A model generated the notes under the pieces. That model made no database searches. It saw only the letters and a list, made by a program, of their open reading frames with translations, and was not told the DNA's origin. Of a stretch of DNA of 64,000 nt, positions 6,827 through 37,464 are shown in pieces. How positions within the stretch are numbered: position 1 is the first letter of the stretch; each line of letters starts with the position of its first letter. The stretch comes from Tolypeutes matacus (taxonomy: Eukaryota > Chordata > Mammalia > Cingulata > Chlamyphoridae): the NCBI GenBank assembly GCA_026826555.1, contig JAKSZT010053883.1:24220355-24284354 (forward strand), given 5' to 3'. A program made the position numbers and the translations under genes.

Positions 6827-6882
6827 ACCAAATATATTGTGTAAATATATACAGTTTGATCAAAAAAAAAAAAAAAAAAAAA

Positions 6883-7063: not shown

Positions 7064-7081
7064 GAAAGTGAAAGGATAGAA
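7064..7081 (+). repeat. Target-site duplication, right copy, of the young L1
   Basis: Identical over 18 bases to 738-755. Old L1 copy A resumes directly after it with 'aaaatattccacacaaatag', the continuation of the endonuclease-region sequence. Confidence 0.9.
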
Positions 7082-7174
7082 AAAATATTCCACACAAATA
7101 GTAACCTAAAGGGAGCTAGGGTGGCTATAGTAATATCAGACAAAATAGTATTTAAATAAAAAATTGTTATAAGA

Positions 7175-9871: not shown

Positions 9872-10846
9872 GGAGGATCTCATTGACTGCCACAGTAAAC
9901 AGTGCCTTAAGCAGGGTCTCCTAAGGGCTCTAGAGACATCTAGACACTGTAGGCAGCACAGAGAACCCCAGGAATAGGGCACCCTCTCAGTGGGCCTTAC
10001 CTTGGAATATATGTTCCTCAATGTAACAGAGTTAGACTCATTTATAATTTCCCCACGCATGGCTTTTCTGCTGCTTTTATTTGAACCTACAATTAGCACT
10101 ATACTCGTTAAATATATATCCCAGAGACTTAAATCTTGGATCTGTTCATATGTCAGTTGAGCCCTGAATCTTGGCAGAGTTGCAGCCAATACCTACTCTC
10201 CAGTTCATTGGACTCACCCAAGACAACTAACAAAAGGATGATGACAGACGATGCCCATGCCACAAAACAAAGAGTATCTACAGCTGCAAGCAAGACAGTT
10301 CCATCCATCTAAGGGATCTAAGACCCCACTCAGTCAGAATCAGAGTGGGCATCACCATCCTAAAATCCTCAAGATGGAGGAATGAACAGACATAAGAGTG
10401 GAATGCAACTATGGACCAAAGTAGACTTATTATTATTCTAGTAATGAAAGAACTTGTAACACTGATAGAAGACAATGGTCACCAGAGGTTCTGAGGCGAG
10501 GGAGAGGGAAGAATAGGTTTAACATGGGGCATTTTGGGGACATTGGAATTGTTCTGAATGGCATTGCAATGATGGATACAGGCCATTATACATTTGCCAA
10601 AACCCATAAAATTGCACGGTGCGAAGTGTAAACCATAATGTAAACTACAGACCGTGGTTATAGCAATGTTTCAATATGTGGTCATCAATTGCAACGAATA
10701 TACCACACTAATGAAAGATGTTGTTAATGGAGAAAAGTGTGTGTGGTGGGTGTGGTATATGGGAACCCCCCTACATTTTCAATGTAACATTTATGTAATC
10801 TAAAGCTTTTTTAAAATTTAAATTAAATTAAATTTTTTTAAAAAAT
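9872..10846 (+). mobile_element. About 975-bp poly-A retroposed repeat (longest copy of the 30-730 family)
   Basis: Inserted in old L1 copy A: 'aatgaagt' flanks it on both sides (about 9863-9870 and 10,844-10,851). It ends in 'taatctaaagcttttttaaaatttaaatt...', an A/T-rich tail. The 3' 520 bases match the repeats at 30-730 and 29,080-29,330. The upstream 450 bases ('gggatctaagaccccactcag', 'gcctgaatcttggcagag') are present only in this copy. No convincing coding frame is visible. It could be the 3' end of a long retrotransposon whose body is not in this window. Confidence 0.65.
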
Positions 10847-19720: not shown

Positions 19721-21340
19721 AGCCGTGTGGTCTCATGCACCAGACGCCTGCACACACGTGGAAGGAGTTCCTACCTCATGGGATGATTTTGAGAATGAAA
19801 TGAGTTGTGTGATAAGCACATGTGCAGATGGCACCAAGGATTTGCTATCACTGTTCCTGCTGCCTGGAGAAGGAGGGAGGAGGACACTGGCCACCACTGG
19901 ACTGGCCAGGATTCCTCTGGTTGCTGGTAACAGGAAACCTAGCTCAAACTGGCTTTAATCTATGGGGGGATTATTAGATCTCGAACCAAGAAGCCCAGGG
20001 GCAGATCCTCACACATAGCTCATTCTGGGGTCTCAGGTGCTATCTTAGGCCTTGGTCTGTCTTTCTCCATCTCCTTTCCCCCATGTGGCTCCCATGTTCA
20101 GGCAGAGTTCCCCCCACTGTCACTGCCCACCTGCACTAGGGCTCCTCTCCCCCAGTGATGCCAAGAGCGGCCCTAGGACTGAGCCTGTCTGGCTGTGATT
20201 GGCTGGCTTGGGCTCTGAACCAATCCCGGCAGTGAGATAATCTGATTGGGCCAGAGTTGGACACGTGCTTCCTCCTCTGAGCCAGGGAGGGGGGCAGCTC
20301 TGCATTCCTTCCCCTCCCACCCTGGACTGAGATGGGAGTTGTGGTTCTCCCGGGAAACCAAACCACCAAAAGGGGTAGTAGATTCTGGACAGGGACAACT
20401 GTCACAATTCCTGTGGAATTACCTAGAACTACAGCCTTGGTCAAGTCACCTTGACTTTCACACCCATAATGTGGGTGTAACAACTCTCCACCAGCCACCC
20501 TCTGAGTCTGGCATGAGGAGATGAGAAAATGGCTCATAAACCCAGAGGCTCTGTAGTACTAGAGTCTGCACAGAGATAAAGCTGCAGCAGGAGGGCACAG
20601 ATCTGAAGGGTCACTTCTGCAAACAGGGGTCAGCATCCTCACCTCACCTACTCTGCAGGATGTCCTGGGGCTCCAGCGAGGCTTGTGACTGTACCAGCAC
20701 TTTGTGAACTGTGCTGGGCCAGCATCGACCGCTGCAGCTGCTGCCAAGTGAGACCTGCTCCCACGGCCACTCCCTAAGGGGCTTGGCTCCATGAAGAATC
20801 AGGGTGGTGCTTTTGCTGGCTACGTGGTCCCTGTGGGGCAAGGAAGGGACGGCTGGCACAACACAAGGAGTGGCACCTTATCAGCTGCTTCTGTGAGCCA
20901 CAAGCCTTCCAGGCCAGCAGGACTGTTTCCTTCAAATGCACCGGTTGTGTTGTGACTTGCTCAGGGAGTAGGAAGCCGGGAGGCCTGGGTGAACTCACCT
21001 TTGCTCCTGCCCTCTGGGTCTGAGCTGGGGCTGCTGGGGATTTCCATATAGGCAGGAAAGGGGACAGGGGTCAGGAGGGGATAGGACTGTGTGTGCTGGG
21101 GTCAGACTGCCTGTATACTGTTTTTGCCTTTGGTCCTTGGACCATACTCTTTTCCTCATCTGAAAGCTGGAGATGATAATATATACCATACAATAATGTA
21201 ACCATAAAATAAAATCTTATATTAGTGATAAAATGAGAACTGGCTCAGGAATTGAACTCCCTAAGGTCAAATCCCAGCTTGACAGCACTTATGGCTGAGA
21301 CCTGGGGAAGAAACTCAGCTTCCTTCTACAGTCATGTGTT
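19721..21340. other. Intergenic, MIR scraps, no recognised gene
   Basis: 20,420-20,525 and 21,080-21,260 look like fragments of MIR ('gtcaagtcacc...', 'tcctcatctgaaagctggagatgataat'). No coding frame with a recognisable motif. Confidence 0.5.
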
Positions 21341-21369
21341 CCTGGAATGGACCTATGCCTGCGATTCCC

Positions 21370-21550
21370 ACCACCTGGAGCAGCATCCCTGTTACCTTAC
21401 CCTTGCTCAGTCATCCTTCAGGCCTCTGCTTGGATACCACCTCCTCTGGGAAGCCGTCCTGAACCCCACAAGGCCCCACCAGTGTTTCAAAAACAAAAGC
21501 CTATCTGCGTCAGTGTGCCTGGCACATAGTAGGTGTTTGCTTGTTGAACG
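21370..21550 (+). repeat. L2 LINE 3' end remnant
   Basis: 'tccttcaggcctctgcttggataccacctcctctgggaagccgtcctgaaccc' and 'gtgcctggcacatagtaggtgtttgcttgttgaa' are hallmark L2 3' blocks in the right order. Confidence 0.8.
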
Positions 21551-21794
21551 GAGTCCCATCACTCTCGTTTCCGAACATTTGCCCAACTTGGCCCCAGGGA
21601 CCTTAGCCTTCCAGAACACGGGCGCTGTAAATGTTAGAGAAAGCCTCTGAGAAACCGAGTCTCAGCAAGTGAGTAACTCAGCCAGAACTGGAACTCGAGG
21701 ATTTGGTGTCAGTGCAGAGTTTCTTCTGGCTTCTGCTCACACAGGGGCTGCAGCGTGTGAACCTGAAACAGCGGCATGGTCACCAGATCAGGAA

Positions 21795-21925
21795 GACTAT
21801 ATAAGACCGAAGAAGATACGCACATGTTTATGTGTTAAAACACATTATCATTGGGAACTCTGTATTGTATGCATAACTGTTCTGTGAACCTACGACTTCT
21901 TTAATAACAATAGTAATAAAAACAT
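21795..21925 (+). mobile_element. L1 3'UTR-like tail fragment
   Basis: 'gggaactctgtattgtatgcataactgttctgtgaacctacgacttctttaataa' repeats the module seen at 7175-7412 and 12,140-12,335. A heavily 5'-truncated copy. Confidence 0.6.
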
Positions 21926-22309
21926 CATCACCTAAGATAAAGAAGCATAAATTGGGGGGAGGGGGGAGATGGCTCCAAATTGCAAGGCAGCAACAGAGCT
22001 AATTCCTCGGATGTTTCAGGTACGTGAGACAGGATAGATATACACTCCTTAAACCTGGTGGGAAATCATGTGCACAGAGGAAGATAAACCCACCAGAATA
22101 ATGAGTTGCAGATATCTTGACTATTTCAACTTAACAGCAATAAGAGTAGAAGACAAAAATCTAAATTATCTTTTAAAAGTACCAAACTAGCATTTTTTAC
22201 AGAAAATCAAACTTTTTACTCTAAGCAGGGAAACTGGCCATTTCTCACGTGGAAGATATGTCCTGACAGAAGAGAAAATGTTATAAAACCAGAAGGAGAA
22301 TATAATTTC

Positions 22310-22505
22310 TTGAGGACCTACTGTGTGTCTGGCACAGGGCTCGGAACTTCTAACGCACTGTTTAAATCCACACGCAAACCATGTGGAGCAGGGATTATTC
22401 CCAAAGCCCAACTGTGTGCCTGCTCCCACAAATATCTGCTGAGGAATGAATGCCCATGTGACAGGCGAGGAAATTGAGGTTCAGAGTGCTTGAGCGGCTC
22501 AGGCA
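22310..22505 (+). repeat. MIR SINE remnant
   Basis: 'ctactgtgtgtctggcacagggctc', 'tgacaggcgaggaaattgaggttcagagtg' and 'ctcaggcaaggcc' in MIR order. Confidence 0.75.
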
Positions 22506-22739
22506 AGGCCTCCTGCCCCAGCTGCTTTCTCAAGGTCTGATCCTGGTTCCACCACTTAATTGCAGGGCAGCGCTGGCCCAATCAGTTCATTGCTGTTTCC
22601 TCATCTGTAATGGGGACAGTCGTATCTGCCAGCAGCTGGCCTAGTACAAAGGGGCTCAGTGGGTGTCGGGGAGATTGTTAGTGCTGGGTGGAGCCAGCCC
22701 TCCTGACGCAGAGCTTATTTGAGCCCAGATTATATGAGC

Positions 22740-22920
22740 CCAGATCATCTTCTCAACAGCCCAGCAAGGGATGTACAACTCTAGAGGACTGTGCTGGGGC
22801 TCAGGGAGGTGAAGTAACTTCCTCAAGGTCATCTAATATTCAGTGGAGCTAGAATTTGAACCCAGGGCTGCATGGCTCAAAAGCCCATGTTCTTAACTAT
22901 TCCACTCAGCTATTTCCTGG
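22740..22920 (+). repeat. MIR SINE remnant
   Basis: 'gggctcagggaggtgaagtaacttcctcaaggtca', 'gctagaatttgaacccagggc' and 'ttcttaactattccactcagc' are MIR core blocks. Confidence 0.8.
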
Positions 22921-23388
22921 TGCTTGAAATGCCACCATTCTATTGAGAAGAAATGAGATACAACGTGTGAAAATGCCTACAGGATTCCTGGGACTCAGCA
23001 AAACACCCACAAAGGGCTCGTTGAGGGGCCAGAGGATGTGATGCCATGGATGCAGAGGCTTGGGAGCAGCCTACTGCTGGGAGGTACCCGGCTGCCCCTG
23101 CAGCTGAGACCTGGGGAGCCAGGTGGCCAAAACAATCACTGCCCAGGACCTGCTTCAGGGCCACTCTATACCCCATCCCTCCGGCCCTGGCGCAGGAGAG
23201 CAAATGTTTCAGGTCAAACCCTGCGACTAGAGAGGCTGTTCGGAGTAAGTCTCATTTCTCTGAGAGAGAAAAAGAAACGTCCTAACAAGTGATTCTGCAG
23301 AGAAAAACTCCTACCTCTGCAGGAAACTGAATCTCCTTGGCACAGTTCAGAGAAGGCAGGGCCCCTTCTATGCATCCATCCATGAGCA
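22921..23388. other. Intergenic stretch downstream of the CD24-like locus
   Basis: No recognisable repeat or gene. Similarity to the CD24 3'UTR stops at about 23,390 with no oligo-T run (minus-strand poly-A tail) at the edge, so the 3' end of the retrocopy is truncated, eroded or not processed at the usual site. Confidence 0.5.
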
Positions 23389-24157
23389 GCATTTTAAGAT
23401 TAGCTGAAATCAATGGCCTTCTACTCTTTGGAATCAGGTTAAGGGTGGTGGCTAAATGAATTTGTCATTCTTGTTGGATAGAAATATGTGATGAGAAATG
23501 CCTACCATTTGACTTTATAAGTGGATCAAGATTTACTCACTATGCTTGGATTTAGGGTAGATTCCTACCCCTCACTGCCCTGGCATGTATCAATGACCAC
23601 AAATGAATGTCAAAGCAAAGCCCCAGAGTAAGAGTCCCATTGCCAGCACGGCAGTGGAAGCTTAACAACGTAAAACTTTAAAGTGCACGGATTTACGGTA
23701 ACACCTGGAGGCTCCTTCCAAATGTACATAGAAATAGAAACCTGGAAGCATTTTATATTTTCTAATAATTTTATGGCCTCAATAAAAACAATCTCCATTT
23801 CATATCCCATCCTTTTGGTCTACACCAAGGTGAAATCTATTCTCTTTTTCAAGAGAGCGTTTTAAGAGTCCATTTGTCTTAGGCCTCTTTTAATGAAATG
23901 AAATCCGAAGCTGTGGACGTTGTGTCTTCAACCTTGTACACGAAATTCCAACATATTTAATACCGGCAAATCCTTTCGATACTCTTCCAACCGTTCAAAT
24001 TCGGGACACTCAAGCTTGTGTCAATAAAATAAAGAGTGGAATTCGCAGAATTGATGAAGAACTATTTTTCCTTACCAAACTGGATTTCAAGACGCCATTT
24101 GGTTTGGGTTTTAGAAGATGGGCTGGAGAAGTGAAGATGTTTCTCGGCCTGAATCTC
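23389..24157 (-). other. CD24-like 3'UTR
   Basis: Read on the minus strand, this stretch keeps the order of the mammalian CD24 3'UTR as I recall it: 'gattcaggccgagaaac', then 'ccaaatggcgtcttgaaatcc', 'ggccataaaattattag', 'ctccaggtgttaccgtaa', 'tgccagggcagtgagg' and 'gattccaaagagtagaa'. More than 700 bases of non-coding similarity is strong evidence that the adjoining frame is truly CD24-derived and not a chance frame. Confidence 0.8.
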
Positions 24158-24367
24158 TTAACAGTAGAGCTGGAAAAGAAGTGAAAGCGACGACAGGACG
24201 AGGACACTGGCTGCCGTCTGCAGGGCCGTGGCTCCCTCTGTCAGTGCGAGGCTCTCAGCCGTCGTCGCGGCAGCAAGCGTCGTCTCCTCTGAGTCAACCT
24301 GCGCGGGCAGGAGCAGCGCCAGGCTCAGCAGCCCCAGCCCCAGCCTGACCAACATCCCTCTGCGCAT
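24158..24367 (-). CDS. CD24: CD24-like GPI-anchored sialoglycoprotein, intronless copy
   Basis: CD24 is a very short, heavily glycosylated GPI-anchored surface protein that binds P-selectin and sialic-acid lectins (family knowledge). This frame encodes 69 residues. The start was chosen at the methionine giving M-R-R-G-M, which aligns with the CD24 signal peptide; an upstream in-frame methionine at 24,565 would only add an arginine-rich non-conserved leader. A signal peptide core (L-G-L-G-L-L-S-L-A-L-L-L-P, residues 9-21) leads into a Ser/Thr/Glu-rich mature core of roughly 25 residues, then a hydrophobic GPI signal (about 48-69, ending S-L-L-F-Q-L-Y-C). The frame is open, but the mature part lacks Asn, so N-glycosylation sites typical of CD24 are gone. 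The coding region runs straight through the point where CD24 normally has its intron (after ...P-A-Q), so it is probably a retrocopy. Whether it is functional is undecided. Confidence 0.75.
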   Translation of the reverse strand: MRRGMLVRLGLGLLSLALLLPAQVDSEETTLAAATTAESLALTEGATALQTAASVLVLSSLSLLFQLYC

Positions 24368-24560
24368 AGCGGCTCCGTCGAGGCGCGGCGGTCCTCTCTC
24401 GGCTCCAGCGGCTGGCGCGTCGCAGGTTCCCGGCGGTCGCCGACAAACTAACGAGCGCGTTGGCCGCTGGTCGTTATTTACCGGGGGCGTCACAAAGGCG
24501 TCACGTGGCGCCGCCGCCCGCCCGCGCTCGACTGCCCGCGAAGGACTTGGTATTTGCGAC
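24368..24560 (-). promoter_or_regulatory. CpG-rich 5' region of the CD24-like locus
   Basis: CpG density is far above the surroundings from about 24,190 to 24,545. On the minus strand, upstream of the start codon, lie a TATA-like TAAATAA at about 24,473-24,479, a CACGTGACG element (E-box overlapping a CRE half-site) near 24,500, and GC boxes ('gcgggcgggcggc'). Part should be CD24 5'UTR; how much is promoter cannot be decided by reading. The start codon context is 'gagccgctATGc'. Confidence 0.5.
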
Positions 24561-26240
24561 AACACGAGGAAAAGTTGCTTAAAAGAGCCTGTGCCCCACT
24601 GCCTAGAGGTTCAAGGTTCCCACTGCCTTTGTTTCCTGGTTCTTAAAAGTGATGTACGTGGTCGAAAGTCGGTAGCACAGACTACCGCGAAGAGGCGAAT
24701 ACCCGGAGATGATTCAGATATTTGGCATGTTTTAATACGGTACATTTGCCTGTCGTTTACACAATAGAGATTATATTTGGCGTCCAAAACTTTGGCTTAT
24801 CAATTATCATGAGCATTTTCCTGTTACCAAATTCTTTTTTAAAAAAACGTGATTTCATCGGCTTCTTAAAACAGTTGCAAACCCAACTCTGTCAATAGTT
24901 TCATCCTCATCTTGTGTTTGCTTGTTTTTAAGGATTCTTATGTATTTATCAGGTTGGAAAGAAAATACACCATGTGCTACTTGGTTGTTTCTAAGTAATG
25001 GGATTTCTGTATTTTCCAACTTTCCTATCGTGGTATAGATTCTTTTGAAGGTTGAACTAGTTTTTCTGAGGGGTGAGGTGGGTGGAATTCAAGCTAGACT
25101 AAAGGGTGAGGTGGGTGGAATTCAAGCTAGACTAAACCAAGGTGGAAATTGCTTTAAAAAAAGAAAAAAAAAAAAAAGACTATAGAAAGACTGAAAATTA
25201 AATAAAGACAGGAAGCTCATGGTTCTAATGGAGCACTTATAGCCTGAATGGAAACTTGAACTTTTTGAGTGACTGGAATGGAAAAAATAATACCTTCACT
25301 TATGTTTGAAATTTGAGAAATGACTTATAAGAAATTTAATTTTAAAAAAATTTTAAACCTTTGCTTCATATTTTCTTGTAAGCTTAAAGAGAAAGTTGAA
25401 AGTTACTCAATAACCTGTTTTCCTTTATTTTCCAGAATGTAAATATTTTCTTTATATTCCAGAAAATAAAAACTTACTTTCTCTGGGCTTTTCCTAAGCC
25501 ACTGCTTCCTGACTCTTCAGAAATCCAATTTGTTTTCCTAAATCCTTAGGGGACAGCCTGAAGAGTTCTCTGCTTCCTTTCTGCCATTTGGGAATTGGGC
25601 ACACACAAACGAGCCGGTCCTGCTAACTTTTTTTTTCTTTTTTAACTTTACACTAGGAAAACAAAGTGGTTATAGTAGCAGAGGTAGTAGTGGAAGCAAG
25701 CACCTTCCTGGGACACTGACTGCTTTAGTCCATATCATGGTCAGATGGGAGGAGATGAGAACAAACTGACATCCCAACCAAGGGTGTCTCGAGACACGAG
25801 GATCCTCATATTTCTCCACCTAACCTGGGCAGCCCCCATCTCCTTCACTTTCCTGGTGACTCAACAGGGAGCCAAGATGTATGATTTTGGTAAGGACGGA
25901 AACTTGTATTCCCGTCCTTCTGCTCCACCCAGCACGGCCTGGGCTTCTCCTCTGTGCTCATGCTCATCCTCCTCCTCCGTCACAGTGTGGAGTGGCCGTT
26001 TATCATTCCTGGTAGTCCCCCGGCAAGAGAAACTTCTCCCTACCATCAGGAGAGTTTCCTGTCTTAAGAGACCAAGCCTGAAAAGGTCAGAGGTTTCCAT
26101 TCCCTTTCTCCTTTACAGCTTGGATGCAATCACGTGATGAGTTTCCTCCAATTGGATGAATGCTCAGCACACATTTTGGACGAAAAGCTTCTGACAACTT
26201 TTCTGCTTAAATTGTATGGAATAACAACCCTATTTGGTAT
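24561..26240. other. Intergenic, AT-rich, no recognised gene
   Basis: No recognisable frame or repeat family, apart from the 33-bp tandem duplication at 25,071-25,136 and short A runs. A 130-residue plus frame at 25,745-26,137 has no motif I know and is treated as chance. Confidence 0.5.
25071..25136 (+). repeat. Perfect 33-bp tandem duplication
   Basis: The unit beginning 'gggtgaggtgggtggaattc' and ending 'gctagactaaa' occurs twice in a row without a single difference (25,071-25,103 and 25,104-25,136). Confidence 0.98.
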
Positions 26241-26269
26241 GTGACAGTATTGCATGTTCAAAAACTCCC

Positions 26270-26560
26270 CACCTTTTAGGACCGAGTTACAATGCTGCCT
26301 CCTCCAGGAAGTCTTCTCTGATCCCTTCAGCCAGAAATGATTGCTCCCTTATCCAATTTTCCTGTGTGCTTTACCTTATGGCATTGTAGCTCCTTGAGGG
26401 CAGTGACACCCTCTGTGCACCTCAGTCTTCAAATTACTGAAACAATACCTAATGTGTGGGTTGGTTTGCCAGTGCAATGTCTTCTCAGCCCTCAGCTATC
26501 GGTTTTTCCTTTGCACTTTGCCTCAGGGGATCTCTTTGCATGTTCTTGCTCTTCTCCTGT
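26270..26560 (+). repeat. L2 LINE remnant
   Basis: 'ctcctccaggaagtcttctctgatccc', 'tatggcattgtagctccttgagggcagtgacaccctctgtgcacctcag' are L2 3'-end blocks in order. Confidence 0.6.
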
Positions 26561-27795
26561 CCCTCTCTCAGCAGACTTGTGCTGTCCTTGTTACTGAAAA
26601 CTTACTAGGTTGATGGTAAGGGGCAGGGCAGGGGGAGAGTTCTCTGTTTAAGCTTCAGTGTTGTCCCTGGTCTCGGGGTGTGGCCCTCTCATTTCTCTCC
26701 CAGCTGTAATTGGGAGCTTTAGGGTGTATACATATCCCTCTCTCAGAAGTAGGTTTATGGCAGAGGGAGCATCACAGGCAAAGGCACTGCGGTGGGAGGG
26801 AGCGTGGCCTGTATGAGGTGCTGATGCAAGGCCAGTGCAGCTTGGTGGAAAGAAGTCGGGAATGAGGGAGTTGAGGCCAAGGGAGGTGGGACCAGGGTAG
26901 GCTGGAGTTTAGCCTCCATCCTAAAGACAAAAAGTTACTGAGGCTCTTCTCTACCTCCTGTCCTGTTTCCCAGAAGGCAACAAAAGCTGGGGGAGCTGAG
27001 AAGAAGGCAGAGCATGCTGGCCATGCGTTAGTGTCTTCTCCATTTTGCTAGTGGTAGTAGAGCACGACCGTGGGGTGATGTTTGAGTCACTATTTTCAAA
27101 TCTTGGTCCCATTGCTCATGGCTGCTACCTCCTTTGTGCCATTTCTTTTTTCCCTGGAAACGGCTTTGTTTGAAGACAAAAGGGTCTTCATTTTGGCACA
27201 TTTTGTCCCCTAGACCGGCCCCTTCCCCACACCATCACCTTTCTCTAGGAGGATAGGGCATGCCTGGACTCTGAACAGCAGGGGAGCTGAGGAGGGGGGT
27301 GGAGAGTTGCTGCCCAGGACCAGGCAAAGGCCAGTCACGGCCTGAAAGCACTTAGTCCTAGAGGCTGCAGGTGGAACGACAAGGCTCACCCACCAGGCTG
27401 AGCTCAGGGAAGAGGTCTTCCCAGGAGGCAACGCAAGGTGTCCAAGTGGACCAGCAGCATCACAGGGGTCTTCCAGGTCGCAGCAGACCCAAGACCCAGG
27501 GCTGAGGCTCAGAACAGCAGCAGCTGAGGCCCAGGCAGCACTGGCAGCAAAAGGCAGGATGCTGTTCTTTCAAAATCATCCACCCTCGGGCCGCAAGGGC
27601 CCAAGTGTCACTGCACCTGCAGACTGAGCCTGGGGCTGGGCTGAAGCTGCTCAGACTATCTGGGGGCAAAGTCAAGGTTAGACTCAGAGCCAGAGCAGAG
27701 CTGAGCCCACAGGTGCGTGGGTGGTGGTCCCAAGGCTGAAAGAGGAGGCAGCCAGAGGGAGGACCTGAGAGGGCTCAGACTGGAGCTAAACACTG
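26561..27795. other. Intergenic, no recognised gene
   Basis: 26,760-26,920 ('gcagagggagcatcacaggcaaaggcactg', 'gaatgagggagttgagg') resembles a reverse-oriented ancient LINE/MIR-type fragment. Remaining sequence is G/A-rich with only chance frames. Confidence 0.45.
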
Positions 27796-27799
27796 ATTG

Positions 27800-27995
27800 G
27801 ACAAATAATGGTGACCGCCAGTGAGTGCTGCCTTTATTCTTTGCACCTGCTAAGCTTTATCTCATTTAACTCTATGAGAAATCAGTTTTACAAATGAGGA
27901 AACCAAGGCTCCAAGGATGACATAATTGAAGCCTCATTGCACAAGGAGGTGGAGTTAGCATTTAAGGCCTGCCTGGCTCTAGAGCCAGAGCTCTT
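27800..27995 (+). repeat. MIR SINE remnant
   Basis: 'ccagtgagtgctgcctttattc', 'ttatctcatttaactctatgag', 'caaatgaggaaaccaaggctcc' and 'gttagcatttaaggcctgcctggctctagagcc' are in MIR order. Confidence 0.8.
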
Positions 27996-27999
27996 AGCC

Positions 28000-28440
28000 C
28001 TGCCCACCTCCCTGAGGTCATCCCCTTGTCACTCCCCCTGGCTCACCTGCCCTGGCCACACTGGCCCTCTGGACATTCCTCCAACACACCTCCATCAGCC
28101 TCCCCAAGGCCCTCACACATGCTGGTGCCTCCCTGTGGGACGCCCCATCCCTGACCGGCTGCCTGGCTTCCATCTCAGCCAATCACCACTTCCTCAGAGC
28201 AGCCTTCCCTGAGCCCCCAACCAAAATCACAACCCCTCATCTAACCACTTACCCTGTCCATTAGTTCCCTTTTGTTATGTCCATCACATTCCATAATCAC
28301 GCATTCATTAGCGACTTCTAACATGGGCGGCCCCTGCAAGGCCACTGGTTACCTGAGGAGAGGGCTCTGCCGAATCCCTGTGCCTGGCACAGAGCTGGGC
28401 ATAGAGTGGCCACTCAATACTGTCTTGCTGAATAAATGAA
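28000..28440 (+). repeat. L2 LINE 3' end remnant
   Basis: 'tgctggtgcctccctgtgggac', 'tcctcagagcagccttccctgagc', and 'tgcctggcacagagctgggcatagagtggccactcaatac' ending in 'gaataaatgaatgaatg' match the L2 3' region. Confidence 0.7.
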
Positions 28441-28472
28441 TGAATGGGTGGGTGAATGAATAAATGAATGAG
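28431..28472 (+). repeat. (TGAA)n-type microsatellite
   Basis: Imperfect tetranucleotide run 'aataaatgaatgaatgggtgggtgaatgaataaatgaatga' growing from the L2 3' end. Confidence 0.8.
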
Positions 28473-28905
28473 GTCTTTAATCTTTTTACAAGTTTTTGAG
28501 GCAGGTGTTATCCCTCATAGAGAAAAATAGAGTTTTGTTCAAACATTAGAGAAATGTAAAAACTAGAAAGTAAGGTTCCCAGCCTCTCACTCCCCTTATC
28601 TCCATTTTGCAGATGAGAAAACTGAGGCAGACAACACTTTCTTCACGACCCAGCCTCATTGCCTAAGAGCACGCAGCTCAGCTGGGCTCCACCTGCCAGA
28701 TGAGACACCAGCAGCTCAGGCATCTAGGGGAGGGGGCGGACCAAGACCCTGGGGACGTCTCAGGCAGTTGCAAACAATTGGTTCACTTGGATGGGCTGTT
28801 TCTCTTCTGGGTCATTTCTGGCAAATCAATATTCAATTGTGCCACCCAGTGTGGGGCCTGCCTACTCATGATCTTGCCAAAATCTACATAGAGGTGAAGG
28901 TATGA
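28473..28905. other. Intergenic with MIR scrap
   Basis: 28,595-28,700 contains 'ttgcagatgagaaaactgaggcagac' (MIR core). Nothing else recognised. Confidence 0.5.
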
Positions 28906-29372
28906 ATGAAGCCATCAAGATGGTGACATAAGACATCTCCCAGAAAAGGCTCCCTCAGAAACAACTAGAAAAAGGTCAAGTCCCACTTGCTTGGCTCCCT
29001 GGAGGAAGGTAGAGACTGGAGGACTCCAAAAACACTTATTGAAGAAACAAAAGAAAACATAAAAAAAGAAGGTAGTAGTGACATTGCAATGACAGATATA
29101 GGCCATTTTATATCATCATATAACATACAGAACTGTGTGGGAGAGAGTGTGGTCTACAATGTGAACTATGGTCCATGCTTAATGGCAAAGCCCCAGGATG
29201 TGTTTATCAACTGCAATGAATGTGCCACACTAATGAAAGATGTTAATGTGGGAGGTGTGGGAGGTGGGGCATGTGGGAATCCCTATATTTTTTGTGTAAT
29301 ATTTATGTAATCTAAGTATCTTTTTAAAAAAATAAAAAATAAAAAGAATGCATTAAAAAGAAAAAAAAAAGG
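28906..29372 (+). mobile_element. Short L1-like element: 5'UTR start joined to 3' end
   Basis: It opens with 'agccatcaagatggtgacataagacatctcccagaaaa', resembling the first bases of the L1 at 756 ('aagatggaggactagtaagacacgggaatctcttctccagaaaa'). At about 29,070 it passes into the 3' module shared with 30-730 and 10,560-10,830 ('gacattgcaatgacagatataggcc', 'ccacactaatgaaagatgttaatg') and ends in an A-rich tail. No coding region lies between. I infer an internally deleted, non-autonomous copy. Confidence 0.55.
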
Positions 29373-29724
29373 TAGGAGGTCAGTGACTTGGCCCTGCAGT
29401 CTGGACCCCTCCCCTCAATCGGTCCTGCCCAGCTCAAGAGTCACACAGTGGTGACAGCACTCCAGCCCACGTACCTCCTGCCGCAGATGCAAGCCACAGG
29501 ACAACTCACAGCATCGAGTGAGTCACCCCATGTATTTCCAGGCACAGACACCCAAGGCCACATGGACGCAGGGAGGAACCTTAGCAGCTGGCCGGCACCG
29601 TGAATACAGAAGGACCCCCAGAAACAAAGGTGATCCCCCTCGCAACTGCTGGCAAAAGGTGCACACCCAACCGGTTCTTTAACTGCTGCAGCACCTAAAC
29701 GCAAAGACGGGCATTTTGAACGCT

Positions 29725-29728
29725 GACC
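29725..29728 (+). repeat. 4-bp target-site duplication of the ERV (left)
   Basis: 'gacc' lies directly outside the terminal 'tgtgag' of the LTR and recurs at 34,364-34,367 outside the other LTR. Confidence 0.55.
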
Positions 29729-30289
29729 TGTGAGCAAGTTATACACGAACAGTGTGTCTTGGGAACACAAGTTCAGGGCACAACAGAAACTTTCAGCAAA
29801 TGATCCCTTTCTGGTACAGAATAAAGAATCCAGAAAGGACACATCATCTTGTCACTTTGTACAAAGAGTCCAAAAGAGCAGGGGGAGAAGTCCCATCATG
29901 GCCGGTCTCCCGAGGTGGCTGAAACTGCTTTGGGTCGGGGTCAATAGATGGCAGCTCCCCACTCCCCACTTCATGTTCAAGAAGAGAGAGAAATGTATAC
30001 TGTTTGAGCATAGCTTTTATACACCCTTGGCGGGGAGAGGGCCTGGCACTGAGAATTACTATTCTGATAAGCATTTGGGGCTGCTCGCTCCTGGTTTCTG
30101 GGTTTAAGGTCTAGCAGGGCCTTTCCATTAGACTTACATCTCCCCCAGATTGAAGAATGGCACACAATAAAAAAGGAGGTGGGGGTAGAGGAAGGCCTGA
30201 GGATGGCCGCTTAGCATGTATTTGTGACTTCCCCAGAGAAGGAGATGTGGATTGGTGAGGCCTGGGCAATGGCCGTGACTTCCTCAACA
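29729..30289 (-). repeat. ERV 3' LTR
   Basis: About 561 bases that match, block by block, the sequence at 33,390-34,363 ('aacagaaactttcagcaaatgatccctttctggtacagaataaag', 'gataagcatttggggctgctcg', 'ggaatggcacacaataaaaaagg'). Read on the minus strand it starts TGTTGAGG and ends CTCACA. A TATAAAAG box is present on the minus strand at about 30,012-30,020. A purine-rich stretch ('actgagggtggac') lies just upstream on the minus strand, as a polypurine tract should. Confidence 0.8.
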
Positions 30290-32111
30290 GTCCACCCTCA
30301 GTTTTTGACCAGTCCTTGCCTATTCCTCCATGTTATCTATTACAACAGAAGCCCACTTCTTATCTCGGACACAAAGGCAGAGACAGGTCGGACCTGCTGG
30401 CATGTCACCTTCAGGAGAGGTTTGGGCTGAGCATGCTGTAAACTCAGCAATGCCAGTCTAGGTAGCAGACAGAGATTGCCTATCCTATGTTCACTGGTAA
30501 ATAAACTGAAAAGATGACTGAGCCATTTGTCAGTTTCATTGCATCAAGGGTTGTCACATCTCAACAGGTAGCAGAAGAATGCACAGCCAGTGGCTGGGCC
30601 ATTGTCCTTGTTGGAGGGACTTTCTGGTATCAGTCCAGACATGAGGCAGGGAAGACCAGCTCCACACATGTCAATCTAGGGTTGGGAAAAAGCAGAGTGA
30701 GGGACCACAATGGCAGATCCAGCTCTTGGTCAAGCTCCCTGCCACACGACGGTCTGGGTCAGCTGGACAAAGGGATCTTCCTTCCAGGTTGTTGCTGGGT
30801 TAAACAAGAGAAGGGAGCAGTGACTAGTCCCGTGGGAGATACTTTTCTCAGCCTATTTGCAATAACATTTCCTTCTAAGGCCACCAGTCTGTCAGCCCCT
30901 TACCCTGAGCTATAGACTGCACCTTTTCCCCCACTGACCTCAGTGCCTTCCCATATCTTCTGGCCTACTTCCACCCCTTCCTGAGAGATGGGAGCTGCCA
31001 GGACTCCTTGAAGGTGTCCCATGACAATTCCCAAAGAGGGACGGTGGACCAGCTAGGGGTAGGTGTCGCCCACTAACCTCTGGTGGGCCCCACAGTTCTC
31101 ACCCACCAGACTATCACCCCACATGTGTTAAGCACTTATAGATCTGCTTCTGCAGTAACCTGTCCCCAAACTCCTGTGGAATGTCCCAAACCTTCCAATG
31201 CTATCTTCTGCTCCCCTCCCCTCTGCAGCTCCCAGAATGATAGTGGCTTGGGCACCTGTAATCAAAAGTGCCATAAAGGGAAGCGGCTGTGGCTCAATCA
31301 GTGGGGCTCCCGTTTACCATATGGGAGGCCCCGGGTTCGGTTCCCGGGGCCTCCTGGTGAGGGCAGGCCCGCCCGCACGGCGTGGTTGGCTGACCCGGCG
31401 AGCACAGGCAGCAAGGGGGGGGATAAATGAATAAATAAATAAATAAATCTTTAAAAAAAAAAAAAAAAAAAAGTGCCATAAAGGTTTGTTTACTGCCCCC
31501 AAATTGTATACACTCTGGGACAAAAGACCTTCAGTCCCCAGGGGGTGGGCGGGGTCCTTGGCCCCACCGCTAGACCATTTTTCATTTGCCACTTCTGGGT
31601 AGAGAGGCCACTCTCAGGGCTGAAGGGAGAGGTGGGAAATCTGCAAACTCCACCTCCTCCTCCACCACCAGGACCTGAGCTCCACGAGCGGTGTTCCCAA
31701 GGGGCATGGGCAGCCGCTGGCCCATTCCATGGGTGTGAGAGCCTACCCCGTTCCTGGGCATGCGCACGTGTCCTCCAGCCTGGCTCCCCTCTAGTCACCA
31801 TGGAGGCCACTCCCTTAGCATGAGAGCCCCTCCCCCAAGAGAGCAGGGTAGGATAAGCTTCCTCCATCTAGTTGCCCCATGGAAGCGCTGGGGTGAGGAG
31901 CAAAATTAGCTTGTCACCCCACTCAGGGAGCCCATTTCTAATAAAAGCAACAGTGACCCACCGAGAAAAGGGAATCTGGTGAGAGGAAAAATCCCTCCAT
32001 CGGGGATGGAATATCCATGCACCAATACCCAATTGTGGCAGAGTGACTGCAGCTTCATCCTTGTTACTCCAAGGCTTAGTTGGAATTAGAAGGAGGTTGC
32101 CCGGAGTGGGG
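30290..32111. other. ERV internal region, unassigned, with one SINE
   Basis: Sequence between the 3' LTR and the MaLR solo LTR. Frames such as 30,514-30,915 (+) and 31,490-31,867 (-) show no retroviral motif I can name. It probably represents decayed internal sequence of the provirus, but part may be captured host DNA. Confidence 0.4.
31278..31468 (+). mobile_element. tRNA-derived SINE (DAS type, long form)
   Basis: Head 'gggaagcggctgtggctcaatcag', B box 'gggttcggttcccgg', then a GC-rich body ('cccgcccgcacggcgtggttggctgac'), an 'aaataaataaat' stretch and poly-A. Flanked by 'aaaagtgccataaa' at 31,264-31,277 and 31,469-31,482. High CpG content means it is young. Confidence 0.95.
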
Positions 32112-32698
32112 TGTATTCATCAGCCAAAGGGGTGCTGATGCTAAGTACCAGAAATCCGTTGGCTTTTATAAAGGGTATTTATTTGGGGTAAAAGCTTACA
32201 GTTACAAGGCCCTGAAGAGTCCAACTCAAGGTACCATAAGAGGTACTTCCTCACCAAAGTCTGCTTCCATGTGTTGAAGCAAGATGGTGTGTGATCTTTG
32301 CCTGGTCTCTCCTTCTTCCTCTTAAGGCTCAGTGTGTTCAGCTTCTTCCGATCTCAGCTGTAAGCTGGGATAGGTCTCATCTCTCCTCACAGGGCTTTAA
32401 CTGTTTGAGCCTTCTCCTTTCTGTCACATGGCAGGACCGAAATAAAAGTTCTCTCCTCTACCATGTGTCTTCTTGAGTGAGAGTCATTTATCTCAGCCCA
32501 CCAAAGGGGCAGGGACTCAACCCTGAGTCATGCCCTAGTGACGTGGTTGAATCAAAGGCCCTAAATTGATTTAATTAAGTAAACTTAAAACCTTTGAATT
32601 TAATACAATCAAAGGGTATCACACCCAGAGGAACAGACCAGTTTACAAACATAATCCATATCTTTTTTGGAATTCATAAATAATATCAAACTGCTACA
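32112..32698 (-). mobile_element. Solo MaLR-type LTR
   Basis: A 587-bp element, TGTATTCATCAGCC... to ...CTGCTACA on the plus strand, flanked by a perfect 5-bp duplication 'tgggg' (32,107-32,111 and 32,699-32,703). It belongs to the same family as 35,899-36,453 and 37,465-38,123 ('caaaggggtgctgatgc', 'ttataaagggtatttatttggggtaaaagcttacag', 'ggaacagaccagtttacaaac'). The minus-strand orientation is inferred from similarity of its reverse complement to MaLR LTRs. Confidence 0.8.
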
Positions 32699-32761
32699 TG
32701 GGGTATGCTCTTCTAACTCGCTTTAGGACCCAGTCAAACAAAGGCTGGGGCTGGGCCACGC

Positions 32762-33389
32762 CTAGCTGTTTAAACCACAGCTCCTTCCCTCTTCCCCACT
32801 TCCCACTCTCAGGTCCAGGTGGCTGAGAGTCTGTTGGAGAACCAGGCTAGATATGAGGCATCGGGGACTTTTCCACTCAGCCTGGTTATTCGGGGCACTT
32901 GTCACCCCTTTATCATAAAGCCAGGACAGCCATGACAGGAGGTCCTCTCCAGTCCCCTGCCCATATTTATCTTTCATATCCCACATCTCTTTCTTCTTAA
33001 AAGCTTGCACCTTTGTCTTCACCTCTGGTTCCACGTCTTCAGTTCTAACTGTTTCCTGAATAACAATTGGTCTCATACTAACCTCAGAATCTGAGTAGTC
33101 CAACTAGCCAACTCTCTGGCGTTCATGGAGGGATTTTCAAAATCCCATTTATCACTGCCTCTTCCCCAGAGAACAGAGACAACATGCCCTAGGTATCCCA
33201 GCCCTGGGTAGGCATTTCTACTCACACTGGTAGGATGGGGGCAACCCCTCAATTTAGCCCACAAAGTCTTGAGTCCTGAGTTACCCAAGATGTATTGGCA
33301 CAAAAGGAACACAAGAGCAATAAGAAGAGCAGCCAAAAAATTAACCCACTCCATATTTCCCTGGATACCCTGCTCATTGCACCAAAATC
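32762..33389 (-). pseudogene. ERV gag-like fragment
   Basis: Two overlapping minus frames (33,417-33,073 and 33,103-32,762) follow the primer-binding site, where gag belongs. The first has a hydrophobic stretch near its start (N-F-L-A-A-L-L-I-A-L-V-F-L-L). The second contains 'EDLLSWLSWLYDKGV', a pattern I associate with the N-terminal half of ERVL/HERV-S-type Gag. A frameshift near 33,080-33,100 separates them and the gene is cut short by the MaLR LTR at 32,698. It is a structural-protein remnant with no coding capacity left. Confidence 0.5.
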
Positions 33390-34363
33390 TGTAGAGCAGA
33401 TTATTACAACAGTGCATTGTGGGACTACAGGTTCAGGGCAACAACAGAAAATTTCAGCAACTGATCCCTTTCTTGTACAGAATAAAGTGTCCAAAAAGGA
33501 CACATCTCCTTGTCACTGACTTAGTACAAAGAGTCTAAAAGAGCAGGGAAGAAGTCCCATCAAGGCCAGTCTCCCGCAGTGGCTGAAAACTGCTCTGGGT
33601 CAGGGTCAATAGATGGCAGGCAGCTCCACATGCCCCACTTCATGTCAGAGAAGAGAAATAAAATTATACTGTTTGAGTGTGTTTTTTAATCCACCTCAGG
33701 GGAAAGGGGCCCTGCCACTGAGAATTCTTGTTCTGATAAGCATTTGAGGCTGCTTGTTCCCAGTTTTAACAACTCCCAAAGGTTGTGGAATGGCACACAA
33801 TAGGAAAGGAGGTAGGGGTAATGGAGGGCCAGAGAATGGCCACTGCTTTAGTTTCCTAGGCTGCTCCAGGAAATATCATGAAATGGGTTGGCTTTAAACA
33901 ATGAGAATTTATTTGCTCATGATTTGGAAAATGTCCAAATCAAGGCATCAAGCCTACCAGTGATCCTTGGCTTCTCTGCCACATGGCAAGGCACATGGTG
34001 GCACTGCTGGCCTCTCCCTTCTATTCTGGGTTTCTTTGATTTCAACTTCTTGTTTTTTGGGTTTTCCTCTCTCTTTCTTGGTATTCATCCCATTTATAAA
34101 GGACTGCAGTAATAGGATTAAGACCCATCCTGATTGAGGTGCACCACACTTTAACTAGAGTAGCTTAAACAAAAGTTACTATTTACAATGGGTCCACACC
34201 CACAGGAATGGATTACACTTAATAACATGTTTTTCTGGAGTACATACAGCTTCAAACCACCACAGCCACTTAGCGAGTGTTTGTGACTTCCCCAAAGAAA
34301 AAGGTGGGGGTAGGTGAGGTCTGGGTGATAGCCACTTAACAGATGTTTGTGACTTCTCTAACA
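33390..34363 (-). repeat. ERV 5' LTR, split by a solo LTR
   Basis: Same LTR as 29,729-30,289 but 974 bases long because a 421-bp MaLR-type LTR (33,844-34,264) and its duplicated target were inserted. Without it the length is about 548 bases, as expected. It starts TGTTAGAG and ends TCTACA on the minus strand. Confidence 0.8.
33844..34264 (-). mobile_element. Solo MaLR-type LTR inside the ERV LTR
   Basis: TGCTTTAGTTTCC... to ...AACCACCACA on the plus strand, flanked by the perfect 5-bp duplication 'gccac' at 33,839-33,843 and 34,265-34,269. The 5-bp duplication fits MaLR/ERVL integration. It is younger than the provirus it split. Confidence 0.85.
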
Positions 34364-34369
34364 GACCCC

Positions 34370-34890
34370 ACTTGGCTGCCTGGGGTGAGATACCCTAATG
34401 TGGAAGTTAGTGGAAGCAGAAAAGTCTCAAAGATAAAAGGGAAGACTGAACTGCTTTAAGGCAGGTTGAGCTCCAAGACTGAAAAGTGTAATGAAAAGGG
34501 TGCACTGAGTGAGAGAAAGTAGTTGAGCAAATCACAGGAATTGTGGAGAAAAATATGCACAAACACAAAAACCCAAAACAAGAACATCTCAGGACTCCAG
34601 GAGAAAGAAAAGAAGAAAGAAAGACTTCCCCTGGAAGCGAAATAATTGAACATAAAATGGCAATCTGAAAAGTTGCACCATGTGTCCAGAACAAGAAACA
34701 GGTACAGAAGAGCTGAGAAAATATGAACAGTTAAACATGGGCTGCTCTAAAGTTTCGGTATAAGCCGGACCAAGCACAGAAGAACCTTAACACATAGCCA
34801 ATCTACAATACAACCTAGCAAGAGGGGAAAACTGACTTTTAGAGTTAGCACATCAAAATAATCAGATGCCCAGACATGAGAAAATAATTA
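34370..34890. other. Possible L1 5'UTR remnant or unassigned
   Basis: A-rich sequence leading into the old L1 ORF1 of copy C. It probably includes its 5'UTR ('aacaagaaacaggtacagaagagctg'), but no clear L1 5' end can be placed. Confidence 0.4.
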
Positions 34891-34914
34891 CAAGCCAACT
34901 AAGTAACAGGAAGA

Positions 34915-35837
34915 TATGGCTCAGTCAGGAGAACAAATCAAAACTTTGGAGGAGACACAGATCTTGGAACAACTAATCAAATATATTCAGTCAAATCCCT
35001 AAGTCAATACCAGGAATTGAAGTAAAATACAGATAGAAATAAACTAAATATGGATTTTGAGAGGAAGGATATTAAGAAGACAATGTGTAAGCAAAAAGAA
35101 ATATTAGAAAGTTTAAAAAGAAACTTAACAGAAATTATGGGGATGAAAAGCACAATAATGGAGATTGAAAATACACTGGAGGCATATAACAACAGATTTG
35201 AACAGGTAGAAGAAAGAATCAGTGAACTAGAAGACAGGACAATCAGAAAAACAGACAGAGAAATGAATAAAAACAAACCAAGCAGTGTCTAAAGAACCTG
35301 TATGACAGCAAGAAGTGTACCAACATACCATCATGGGAGTCCCAGAAGAAGAAGAGAAGGAGAAAAGGGAAGCAAGAATATTTTAGGAAATAATGGCCAA
35401 AAATTTCCCAACGCTTATGAAAGTCATAAATATGCGTGTCCAAGAAGCATAACAAACTCCAAACAAGGTAAAAACCTAATAGTCTTACTCCAAAAAACAT
35501 ACTAATCATAATGTCAAATGCCAAAGATAAAAAGAGAATTCTGAGTACAGCAAAAGAAAAGTGATTCATCACATACAAGGGATCTTCAATAAGATGAGAT
35601 ACCAATTTCTCATCAGAAACCATGACAGCAAGCAGACAATGGCATGAGGTATTTAAGGAACTGAAAGAGAAAAAAAACTGCCAGCCAAAAATTCTTTATC
35701 TGGCAAAACTATTCTTCAAAAATGAGGAAGAGTTTAAGACATTCACAGATAAACAAAAAACAAAAGAGTTTGTCACCAAAAGATGTACCCTAAAAGAATT
35801 GCTAAAGGGAGTTCTTCAGATTGAAGGGAAAAGATAG
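34915..35837 (+). pseudogene. Old L1 copy C ORF1
   Basis: Coiled-coil part readable at 35,050-35,292 ('LEAYNNRFEQVEERISELEDRT'-like heptads), RRM start near 35,325 ('catcatgggagtccc'), and C-terminal domain at 35,622-35,837 ('CQPKILYLAKLFFKNEEEFK'). Several frameshifts and stops. The RNA-binding function is lost. Confidence 0.85.
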
Positions 35838-35898
35838 GAGAGAGTGACTTGGAATACTATGAAAAAGTGAAACTCTTCAGTAAAGATAAATAAATGGT

Positions 35899-36453
35899 TG
35901 TGCCAGTCAGCCAAAGGGGTGCTGATGCAAAATACCAGAAATCAGTTGGTTTTTATAAAGGATATTTATGTGGGGTAGAAGTTTACAGTTATCAGGCCAT
36001 AAATCATAAATTTCTTCCTCCACCAAAGTCTGTTGCCACGTGTTAGAGCAAGACAGCTGCCAACATTTGCCAGGGTTCAGGCTTCTTGGGTTCCTCTTTT
36101 CCTGGGGCTCCATTTCTCTCCGGGCTCAGCTCCTCTGGTTCCTCCACAAGGTCAGCTGTAGACTATGAGGCTCTCTAGGCTCTGCCTCTCTCCACAAGGC
36201 CAGCTGTGAACTGTCGGCTCGTCTCTTTTCCCAGGGCCTTCTCTCCTTCCTCATCAGAACCCTGACATCAAAACTGCTCCAACTCTGTCCTTTGCCCACT
36301 CACCAAGGGGCAGGGCTCAACAGCCTACTGACATGGCCCAATCAAATCCCTAATCATAACTTAATCATGCCCAGATGAACAGACCAGTTTACAAGCATAA
36401 TCCAATATCTATTTTTGAAATTCATAACTATATCAAACTGCCAAACTGCTACA
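35899..36453 (-). mobile_element. Solo MaLR-type LTR
   Basis: TGTGCCAGTCAGCC... to ...CTGCTACA, with near-identical 5-bp flanks 'atggt' (35,894-35,898) and 'atggg' (36,454-36,458). Same family as 32,112-32,698 and 37,465-38,123 but with an internal deletion and a duplicated 'ctgccaaactgc' at the end. Confidence 0.75.
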
Positions 36454-36858
36454 ATGGGTAAATGCAAAACCCAATAGTACTGAATCCTCGATTTATAACT
36501 CTACTCTTTAACTTCAATAAGTTAGAATACAATTGAATACGAAACAGCATATTTCCTGATAAAGGACACACAAAATATAAAGAGGTAATGTGGGACAAAA
36601 ACTATAGAAAGAGGGGAAACTGAGGGATGTGGGCGCAGAGAATGTGTATGCTATTGAAGTTAAGTTGTTATCTTTTGAAATTTAGTTGGTTATAGACTTT
36701 GGTTGCACAAGACAAACCCCAGGGTAACAACAAAGGAAGTATTTTAAAAATATACAGAAAAAGAAATGAGAAAGGGATCAATCAGATACATCACAAAAGA
36801 TCATGTGTACATGAAAACTGCAATAAAGAAAAAGAGAGGCAAAAAAGATACACCATAC
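36454..36858 (+). mobile_element. Old L1 copy C, ORF1-ORF2 spacer region
   Basis: A-rich L1 sequence between two solo LTRs. No open frame. It includes 'ttggttgcacaagacaaaccccagggtaacaacaaaggaag', which resembles sequence found between ORF1 and ORF2 in old L1 families. Confidence 0.5.
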
Positions 36859-37380
36859 TGTCTTAGTTTGCTAAATTCTGCCAATGTAATATACCAGAAA
36901 ATGAGTTGGCTTTTAAAATGGAATTTATGAACTTATGAGCTTACAGTTCTGAGGCCTTGAAAATGTTAAAATCAAGGCATTATCAGATATGCTTTCTCAC
37001 TAAGCTACAGCTGTGGGTTATCAGGCACCTGTCAGGGTCTGCTGGGCCTCATTGCTTTCACCTTTTTTTCTGCTCTGTCTGTGACTTTCCTCTCTCCTGG
37101 GTTCATTAATTTCAACTTCTAGAGGCTTCTAGAAAGAAGTCTCTGCACCCTTTTTTCTCTGTCTGTGACTTTTCATTCCTCCACTTATAAAGGACTCCAG
37201 TAAGAGGATTAAGACCCACCCTGGGTCATGCCTTGCCCTACTGAAATGATCTAATCAAAAGGAAGGTCCCTTAACTGAATCTAATCAAAAGGTCCCATCT
37301 ACAATAGGTTTATATGCACAGGAATGGATTGGCATTAAGAACAGGATTTTCTGGAATCCACTCAGCTTTAAACTGTCAAA
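36859..37380 (-). mobile_element. Solo MaLR-type LTR
   Basis: TGTCTTAGTTTGCTAA... to ...ACTGTCAAA, flanked by the perfect 5-bp duplication 'catac' (36,854-36,858 and 37,381-37,385). The last bases CAAA instead of CACA indicate one substitution in the terminal dinucleotide region. Same subfamily as the LTRs of the element at 53,735-56,496. Confidence 0.85.
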
Positions 37381-37464
37381 CATACAAAAAAACAATCGCC
37401 AAAATGGCTGAAGTAATCCCTGCCTTTACAATAATAACACTGAATGTTAAAGGATTAAACTCCC

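What the first reader, a model, noticed from the sequence alone, without database searches (positions are those of the whole stretch)
23389..24560. Intronless CD24-like gene with an intact but N-glycan-free reading frame
A 69-codon frame on the minus strand has the CD24 layout (signal peptide, tiny Ser/Thr-rich core, GPI signal) and is followed by over 700 bases of CD24-like 3'UTR. It crosses the normal intron position without interruption, yet is still open, and sits in a CpG-rich stretch with TATA-like and CACGTGACG elements. The mature core lacks Asn, so only O-glycans would be possible. It may be an expressed retrogene with changed ligand properties, or a pseudogene that by chance has kept its frame.
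Basis: partly seen in the sequence, partly recalled or inferred. Interest (0 to 1): 0.8.

Follow-up and report, generated by a model that had tools for sequence, protein, structure and literature searches.

The report
Intronless CD24 copy with its promoter
A mammalian genome, perhaps an armadillo's or a relative's, holds an intronless copy of the small cell-surface gene CD24 that seems to have kept the old gene's switch, so it may still be on, although its protein has drifted away from other CD24s and lost its sites for one type of sugar.

Summary
Minus strand 24367-24158 is an intact 69-codon frame descended from CD24, followed by CD24 3'UTR to 23389 (733 of 1,121 columns identical to a recalled human mRNA), with the exon joint closed.

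The copy carries a CD24 core promoter.

It is the window's only CpG-rich stretch, and the richness extends into exon-2 and 3'UTR sequence (23 CpGs against 5 in recalled human), which suggests long hypomethylation in the germline.

The protein looks relaxed: 8 changes in the conserved signal peptide, no N-glycan site (all 127 other CD24s scored have one), no Pfam CD24 match. A frame open by chance is possible (3-8% at 0.12-0.20 substitutions per site).

Best reading: a retrocopy of an upstream-started transcript. No poly(A) tail or convincing target duplication was found, so intron loss at the native locus stays open. Expression, synteny and other individuals could not be tested.

The parts
24158..24367 (-). 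Open frame of 69 codons plus stop, CD24-derived: signal peptide, short N-free core, C-terminal GPI-signal-like tail; joint of the former exons 1 and 2 at 24299/24298
24368..24472 (-). 5'UTR-like stretch between the TATA-like box and ATG; no ATG in it
   Evidence: (5'UTR half 19.7 against 13.6 +/- 2.1, 0 of 40)
24453..24523 (-). Core promoter homologous to the upstream extension of P0117: CACGTGACG (24507-24499) and TAAATAA (24480-24474)
24561..24860 (-). AT-rich upstream shelf with CpG observed/expected 1.03; its relation to the parental promoter is unknown
23389..24157 (-). CD24 3'UTR homology (proximal part); CpG-rich to about 23850, CpG-poor beyond
23850..24860 (.). CpG-rich stretch, the only one in the window at this measure

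Best explanation
A spliced CD24 transcript that began upstream of the usual start site was reverse transcribed and inserted here. Because it began upstream, it carried the parental core promoter (CACGTGACG plus a TATA-like box) along with 5'UTR, the two joined exons and the proximal 3'UTR. The promoter keeps the place unmethylated in the germline; with the intron gone, exon-2 and 3'UTR sequence lies beside the promoter and has become CpG-rich. The copy is probably transcribed somewhere, at least in the germline. The frame is open, but its protein evolves under relaxed or changed constraint; if translated it would be a very short GPI-anchored chain that can carry O-glycans only. Shown: DNA homology, missing intron, promoter homology to one record, CpG pattern, protein divergence. 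Inferred: retroposition as the route, germline hypomethylation, transcription, membrane anchoring, glycan type.
For: DNA homology from 5'UTR through CDS to 3'UTR with the exon joint closed. Core promoter match in order and spacing, 27.3 against 13.3 +/- 1.9, 0 of 40; whole 54-residue extension 37.8 against 15.6 +/- 2.4, 0 of 60, and 15.8 +/- 2.5, 0 of 40. P0117 is itself one open frame from promoter into CD24 CDS, so intronless molecules or copies that span the core promoter exist in a rodent-like source. CpG observed/expected 1.03, 1.42, 0.94 and 0.90 in upstream shelf, promoter plus 5'UTR, exon-2-derived CDS and proximal 3'UTR, against 0.24 in distal 3'UTR and 0.20 in the two flanks measured; 23 CpGs against 5 in recalled human for exon 2 plus proximal 3'UTR. 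The neighbouring PCLAF retrocopy is broken and CpG-poor, 0.17. Xenarthrans have the most retrocopies in that study, 13,403 in Dasypus novemcinctus (PMC13251070, section 7; relevant only if the window is xenarthran). Promoter-carrying retrocopies have a precedent in teleost hatching enzyme genes (PMC6385490, abstract and passages).
Against: No poly(A) tail at 23389 and no poly(A) signal near it. The only target-duplication candidate (24819 and 23395) is not significant: 34% of 200 ungapped, 9.7% and 17.7% of 300 gapped null trials reach its score; its 5' copy lies inside the CpG-rich stretch, whose fitted edge is 24860 or beyond. The distal 3'UTR is missing, which ordinary retroposition does not predict. 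Exon-1-derived CDS has CpG 0.48 only. The nature of P0117's contig (RNA or genomic) is unknown, and it was seen as protein only.
Confidence: 0.6

Rival explanations
1. Neutral promoter-bearing pseudogene: a retrocopy as above whose open frame is chance. It may be transcribed, but the protein has no function and the CpG-rich stretch persists only because the inherited promoter is still hypomethylated. This rival shares the origin and differs in function.
For: 8 of 26 signal-peptide positions changed in a near-invariant segment; no Pfam CD24 match; the frame survives neutral simulation in 7.6%, 4.9% and 2.9% of runs at 0.12, 0.16, 0.20 substitutions per site, 14.3%, 8.5% and 5.2% with half the indel rate; the locus was picked because it is open. 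The frame has no near-identical protein among the database rows seen.
Against: Pairwise dN/dS to recalled human on 45 codons is 0.41 (0.55 in the signal peptide, 0.28 in the C-terminal blocks), though that path includes constrained lineages. Signal, core and tail layout are kept. The nearby PCLAF retrocopy, by contrast, is broken.
Confidence: 0.45
2. Native CD24 gene that lost its only intron, for example by recombination with its own cDNA. The promoter is simply the native one and this may be the main CD24 of the species.
For: Core promoter in place; no poly(A) tail and no convincing target duplication; no other CpG-rich stretch in the window, which would fit the long gene-free surroundings of human CD24 (recalled); no armadillo named in the 120 rows shown of either protein search, with the caveat that names are cut short, five or so rows bear none and the lists were 193 and 223 long.
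Against: Distal 3'UTR absent. Loss of otherwise near-invariant residues and of all N-glycan sites would be odd for a main CD24. Intron loss in place is rare in mammals, retrocopies are common (recalled; PMC13251070). No match to recalled MTRES1 (best E 2.8), though it would be expected outside the window.
Confidence: 0.22
3. Ordinary retrocopy from the usual start site that landed beside an unrelated CpG-rich promoter; the promoter resemblance is chance.
For: The comparison rests on one back-translated record; GC-rich DNA resembles GC-rich DNA; the near half of the extension scores only just above its shuffles (19.7 against a maximum of 19.0).
Against: None of 60 and 40 dinucleotide shuffles and none of 40 residue shuffles reach the score, and the match keeps element order and spacing and ends at the ATG.
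Confidence: 0.06

Closest known systems
Human intronless CD24 copies at 1p36, 15q21-q22 and Yq11 (PMC10358856 and PMC4490449, one passage each)
   Same: Intronless CD24-derived loci apart from the two-exon gene
   Different: Whether those carry the core promoter or a CpG-rich stretch was not examined here; the window copy lacks every N-glycan site
Promoter-carrying retrocopies: teleost hatching enzyme genes (PMC6385490, abstract and passages); Okamura and Nakai 2008 (cited there; not held)
   Same: Intron loss together with a conserved core promoter that includes a TATA box, explained there by transcripts starting upstream
   Different: There the move was shown by synteny and promoter activity by assay; neither could be done here
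HAPSTR2 retrogene (PMC9834230, passages)
   Same: Retrocopy with a CpG island near its start site
   Different: HAPSTR2's promoter does not align with the parental promoter; here the core promoter does
Sloth and anteater CD24 and CD24-like proteins P0059, P0065, P0066, P0093
   Same: Same layout; 54-57% identical to the window frame in the alignment
   Different: They keep the near-invariant signal peptide and N-glycan sites

Membership tests
CD24 protein family (Pfam PF14984) | Match to the family profile | tested here: not met
   P0001: 0 families at E <= 1; recalled human CD24: 5.5e-25
CD24 protein family (Pfam PF14984) | Descent, by DNA homology over 5'UTR, CDS and 3'UTR | tested here: met
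   E 4e-110 (human sequence recalled)
CD24 protein family (Pfam PF14984) | N-glycan sequons in the mature part | tested here: not met
   0 in P0001; 127 of 127 other scored proteins have 1-5; 11 of 139 sequences left unscored
CD24 protein family (Pfam PF14984) | Near-invariant signal peptide | tested here: not met
   8 of 26 positions differ from the consensus; of 127 others 122 differ at 0-5, one at 6, one at 7, and three at 8, 9 and 12, the last three owing to indels because the count was ungapped (sequences)
CD24 protein family (Pfam PF14984) | C-terminal GPI signal | tested here: inconclusive
   Layout and hydropathy kept; no trained predictor on hand
Processed retrocopy | Intron absent at the parental position | tested here: met
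Processed retrocopy | Poly(A) tail at the 3' end | tested here: not met
Processed retrocopy | Target-site duplication | tested here: inconclusive
   best candidate reached by 34% (ungapped), 9.7% and 17.7% (gapped) of null trials
Processed retrocopy | Different genomic place from the parent gene | not tested
   The genome search did not complete
Promoter-carrying retrocopy | Parental core promoter conserved upstream of the copy | tested here: met
   against one rodent-like record read back from protein
Promoter-carrying retrocopy | Parental transcripts that start upstream of the core promoter | tested here: inconclusive
   P0117 is open from promoter into CDS without intron, but its 1,642-base contig may be RNA-derived or a genomic copy
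Native CD24 with intron loss | Conserved neighbours | tested here: inconclusive
   No match to recalled MTRES1 (best E 2.8); six-frame Pfam of 24900-34900, a sixth of the window, found only a PCLAF copy
Native CD24 with intron loss | 3'UTR continues to its distal end | tested here: not met
   Recalled human distal 3'UTR (687 bases): no hit at 1e-3 with 1/-1 scoring; best elsewhere in the window E 0.036 with 2/-3 scoring

The most novel reading that the evidence does not exclude
This is the species' principal or only CD24: the native gene, or a retrocopy that replaced it, has lost its intron, kept its promoter and given up all N-glycan sites, so that this mammal naturally lacks N-glycosylated CD24. 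It would be a natural experiment on which glycans of CD24 matter for Siglec binding.
Probability: 0.15. Interest if true: 0.7.

Novelty: new member of a known kind. Interest (0 to 1): 0.42.

Why it matters
Most retrocopies die because they leave their promoter behind. A copy that brought its core promoter, and whose former exon 2 and proximal 3'UTR have since become CpG-rich, is a clean case for how a new gene gets a live promoter and how a hypomethylated island can spread over sequence that used to lie kilobases away. If translated, it would be a CD24 without N-glycans, a natural test of what the glycans of this innate checkpoint ligand do. If it is only an open pseudogene, it shows that an intact short frame is weak evidence of function.

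Tried and rejected
Target-site duplication: a suggestive pair (24819 / 23395) was found that would fit a tail-less, internally primed insertion. It was dropped as proof because null trials reach the same score in 34% (ungapped), 9.7% and 17.7% (gapped), and the fitted CpG edge lies further out, at 24860.

CpG edge as insertion boundary: considered; other sequence including a PCLAF retrocopy lies upstream of it, so the edge need not be the CD24 copy's own 5' end.

In-frame indels as proof of selection: dropped. A plain DNA alignment of the exon-2 CDS gives eight gaps, two of them multiples of three, against 8 of 31 in the 3'UTR; the in-frame view depends on aligning by protein.

Chance frame: my first rough guess of under 1% was replaced by the simulation, which starts from the recalled human CDS (2.9-7.6% at 0.12-0.20 substitutions per site).

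Synteny by recalled MTRES1: no match. Rfam: nothing at gathering scores in the window nor at E <= 0.5 in 20000-30000. Solved structures: one chance hit, E 0.35. Structure prediction was not run; CD24 cores are disordered (recalled). Pfam on nine neighbouring frames: one chance match at E 0.21.

Full report
What is there. On the minus strand, 24367-24158 encodes MRRGMLVRLGLGLLSLALLLPAQVDSEETTLAAATTAESLALTEGATALQTAASVLVLSSLSLLFQLYC, 69 codons and a stop, intact. [quoted passage not shown] By protein alone the kinship is weak: BLASTP to recalled human CD24 aligns 24 residues, E 0.16, and the frame alone finds no database protein at E <= 1 among 43 candidates.

The promoter is inherited. A protein search returned P0117, an unnamed CD24 whose CD24 part is one residue away from rat P0110 and whose frame is open for 54 residues upstream of the CD24 start. 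Read back to degenerate DNA, that extension matches the window upstream of ATG: 37.8 against 15.6 +/- 2.4 for 60 dinucleotide shuffles and 15.8 +/- 2.5 for 40 residue shuffles, none reaching it. The far half alone (residues 1-27) matches 24523-24453 with 27.3 against 13.3 +/- 1.9, maximum 18.1, none of 40 reaching it; the near half (28-54) is weaker, 19.7 against 13.6 +/- 2.1, maximum 19.0. This stretch holds CACGTGACG (24507-24499) and TAAATAA (24480-24474), 27 bases from start to start, where P0117 has codons for CAYGTNACN and a TATA-like GTNTAYAAR. The copy thus contains a CD24 core promoter, which a transcript from the ordinary start site would not include. The comparison rests on one record seen only as protein.

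The CpG pattern. Of 127 consecutive 500-base pieces only the three in 23501-25000 exceed observed/expected 0.55; the window mean is 0.22. By part: 24561-24860 1.03, promoter plus 5'UTR 1.42, exon-1-derived CDS 0.48, exon-2-derived CDS 0.94, proximal 3'UTR 0.90, distal 3'UTR 0.24, 22389-23388 0.20, 25800-26800 0.20. A change-point fit over 24560-25600 puts the upstream edge at 24860 (2-lnL interval 24860-25081). In exon 2 plus proximal 3'UTR the window has 23 CpGs and recalled human 5 (three further human CpGs fall in gaps and were not assigned); at the window's 23, human has CA or TG at 11, CG at 3 and something else at 9, so gains and human losses are mixed. I infer that the promoter has kept the place unmethylated in the germline for long and that sequence once kilobases away has come under its influence. 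In human the CD24 promoter region (144 CpGs in 1,157 bp) is nearly unmethylated in two breast cancer lines (PMC4596701, passages).

The protein. Of 139 sequences on hand, 128 could be scored (11 without a recognisable signal peptide were left out). P0001 has no N-X-S/T site; the other 127 have 1 to 5. Its signal peptide differs from the consensus at 8 of 26 places; 122 of 127 others differ at 0-5. It does not match Pfam PF14984 at E <= 1, whereas recalled human CD24 does at 5.5e-25. No near-identical protein is among the rows seen (120 of 223 listed). Pairwise dN/dS to recalled human on 45 alignable codons is 0.41 (0.55 in the signal peptide, 0.28 in the C-terminal blocks); since other CD24s barely change in these parts, I infer that most of the replacement happened on this lineage, near the neutral rate or above. 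Neutral simulation keeps the frame open in 7.6%, 4.9% and 2.9% of runs at 0.12, 0.16 and 0.20 substitutions per site with the indel rate of the alignment (14.3%, 8.5%, 5.2% with half of it). An open frame is therefore weak evidence. The layout for secretion and GPI anchoring is kept by eye and hydropathy, not by a trained predictor.

Origin. For retroposition: closed exon joint; inherited promoter with published precedent (hatching enzyme genes, PMC6385490, abstract and passages); CD24 known to have intronless copies in human (PMC10358856, PMC4490449, one passage each); and, if the window is xenarthran, the high retrocopy numbers there (13,403 in Dasypus novemcinctus, PMC13251070, section 7; its main text does not name CD24). 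Against: no poly(A) tail, an unconvincing target duplication, missing distal 3'UTR. The rival, intron loss at the native locus, explains the promoter without an upstream start but needs a deletion of the distal 3'UTR and a loss of constraint on a main CD24. No armadillo is named in the 120 rows shown of either protein search, which would fit the rival but may reflect what the database holds, cut names, unnamed rows or rows not listed. The search of the assembly that would decide was requested seven times and not answered.

Neighbourhood. About 1.1 kb upstream of the frame, 25738-25477 minus is a broken PCLAF retrocopy with stops and a frame change (E 6e-10 to a recalled human protein, Pfam PF15715 7e-05), CpG 0.17. 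It is what a dead retrocopy looks like here. No repeat pair found by self-comparison at 1e-10 overlaps 22000-26500.

Verdict. A CD24-derived intronless copy that brought or kept a core promoter and has a live-looking CpG-rich stretch; probably a retrocopy; probably transcribed at some stage; protein function doubtful. A new member of a known kind, of moderate interest, with a cheap decisive test. Nine literature searches showed no such copy described among the rows listed; that is no proof that none is in print.

Noticed in passing
25477-25738 minus: Broken PCLAF (KIAA0101) processed pseudogene just upstream of the CD24 copy, with stops and a frame change.
   Followed up: partly
24158-24610 minus: The CD24 frame stays open upstream through 5'UTR and core promoter to 24610 (150 codons stop to stop), as in P0117; no ATG lies between the TATA-like box and the start.
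   Followed up: partly
29748-30211 and 33408-33844: Direct repeat pair about 80% identical with retrovirus-like frames between by eye: looks like an old LTR element.
   Followed up: no
1881-9874 and 35059-47293: Several related L1-type stretches, mostly 67-80% identical to each other; the L1 label is recalled.
   Followed up: no
31281-31356, 46715-46790, 51586-51661: Three tRNA-Gly-like calls inside repeats 93-94% identical to each other: tRNA-derived SINEs, xenarthran-looking from memory.
   Followed up: no
22841-22906 minus: tRNA-Lys call that looks like an MIR-type SINE from memory, 0.5 kb beyond the end of the CD24 homology.
   Followed up: no
25071-25136: Perfect 33-base tandem duplication between the PCLAF copy and the CpG-rich stretch.
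   Followed up: no
23389: The CD24 homology ends within a few bases of the place where, in the recalled human 3'UTR, an Alu is inserted (AAAATGC site); possibly a shared L1-endonuclease-prone site, or chance.
   Followed up: partly
40183-40521: Imperfect tandem repeat of about 110 bases, 3.1 copies.
   Followed up: no
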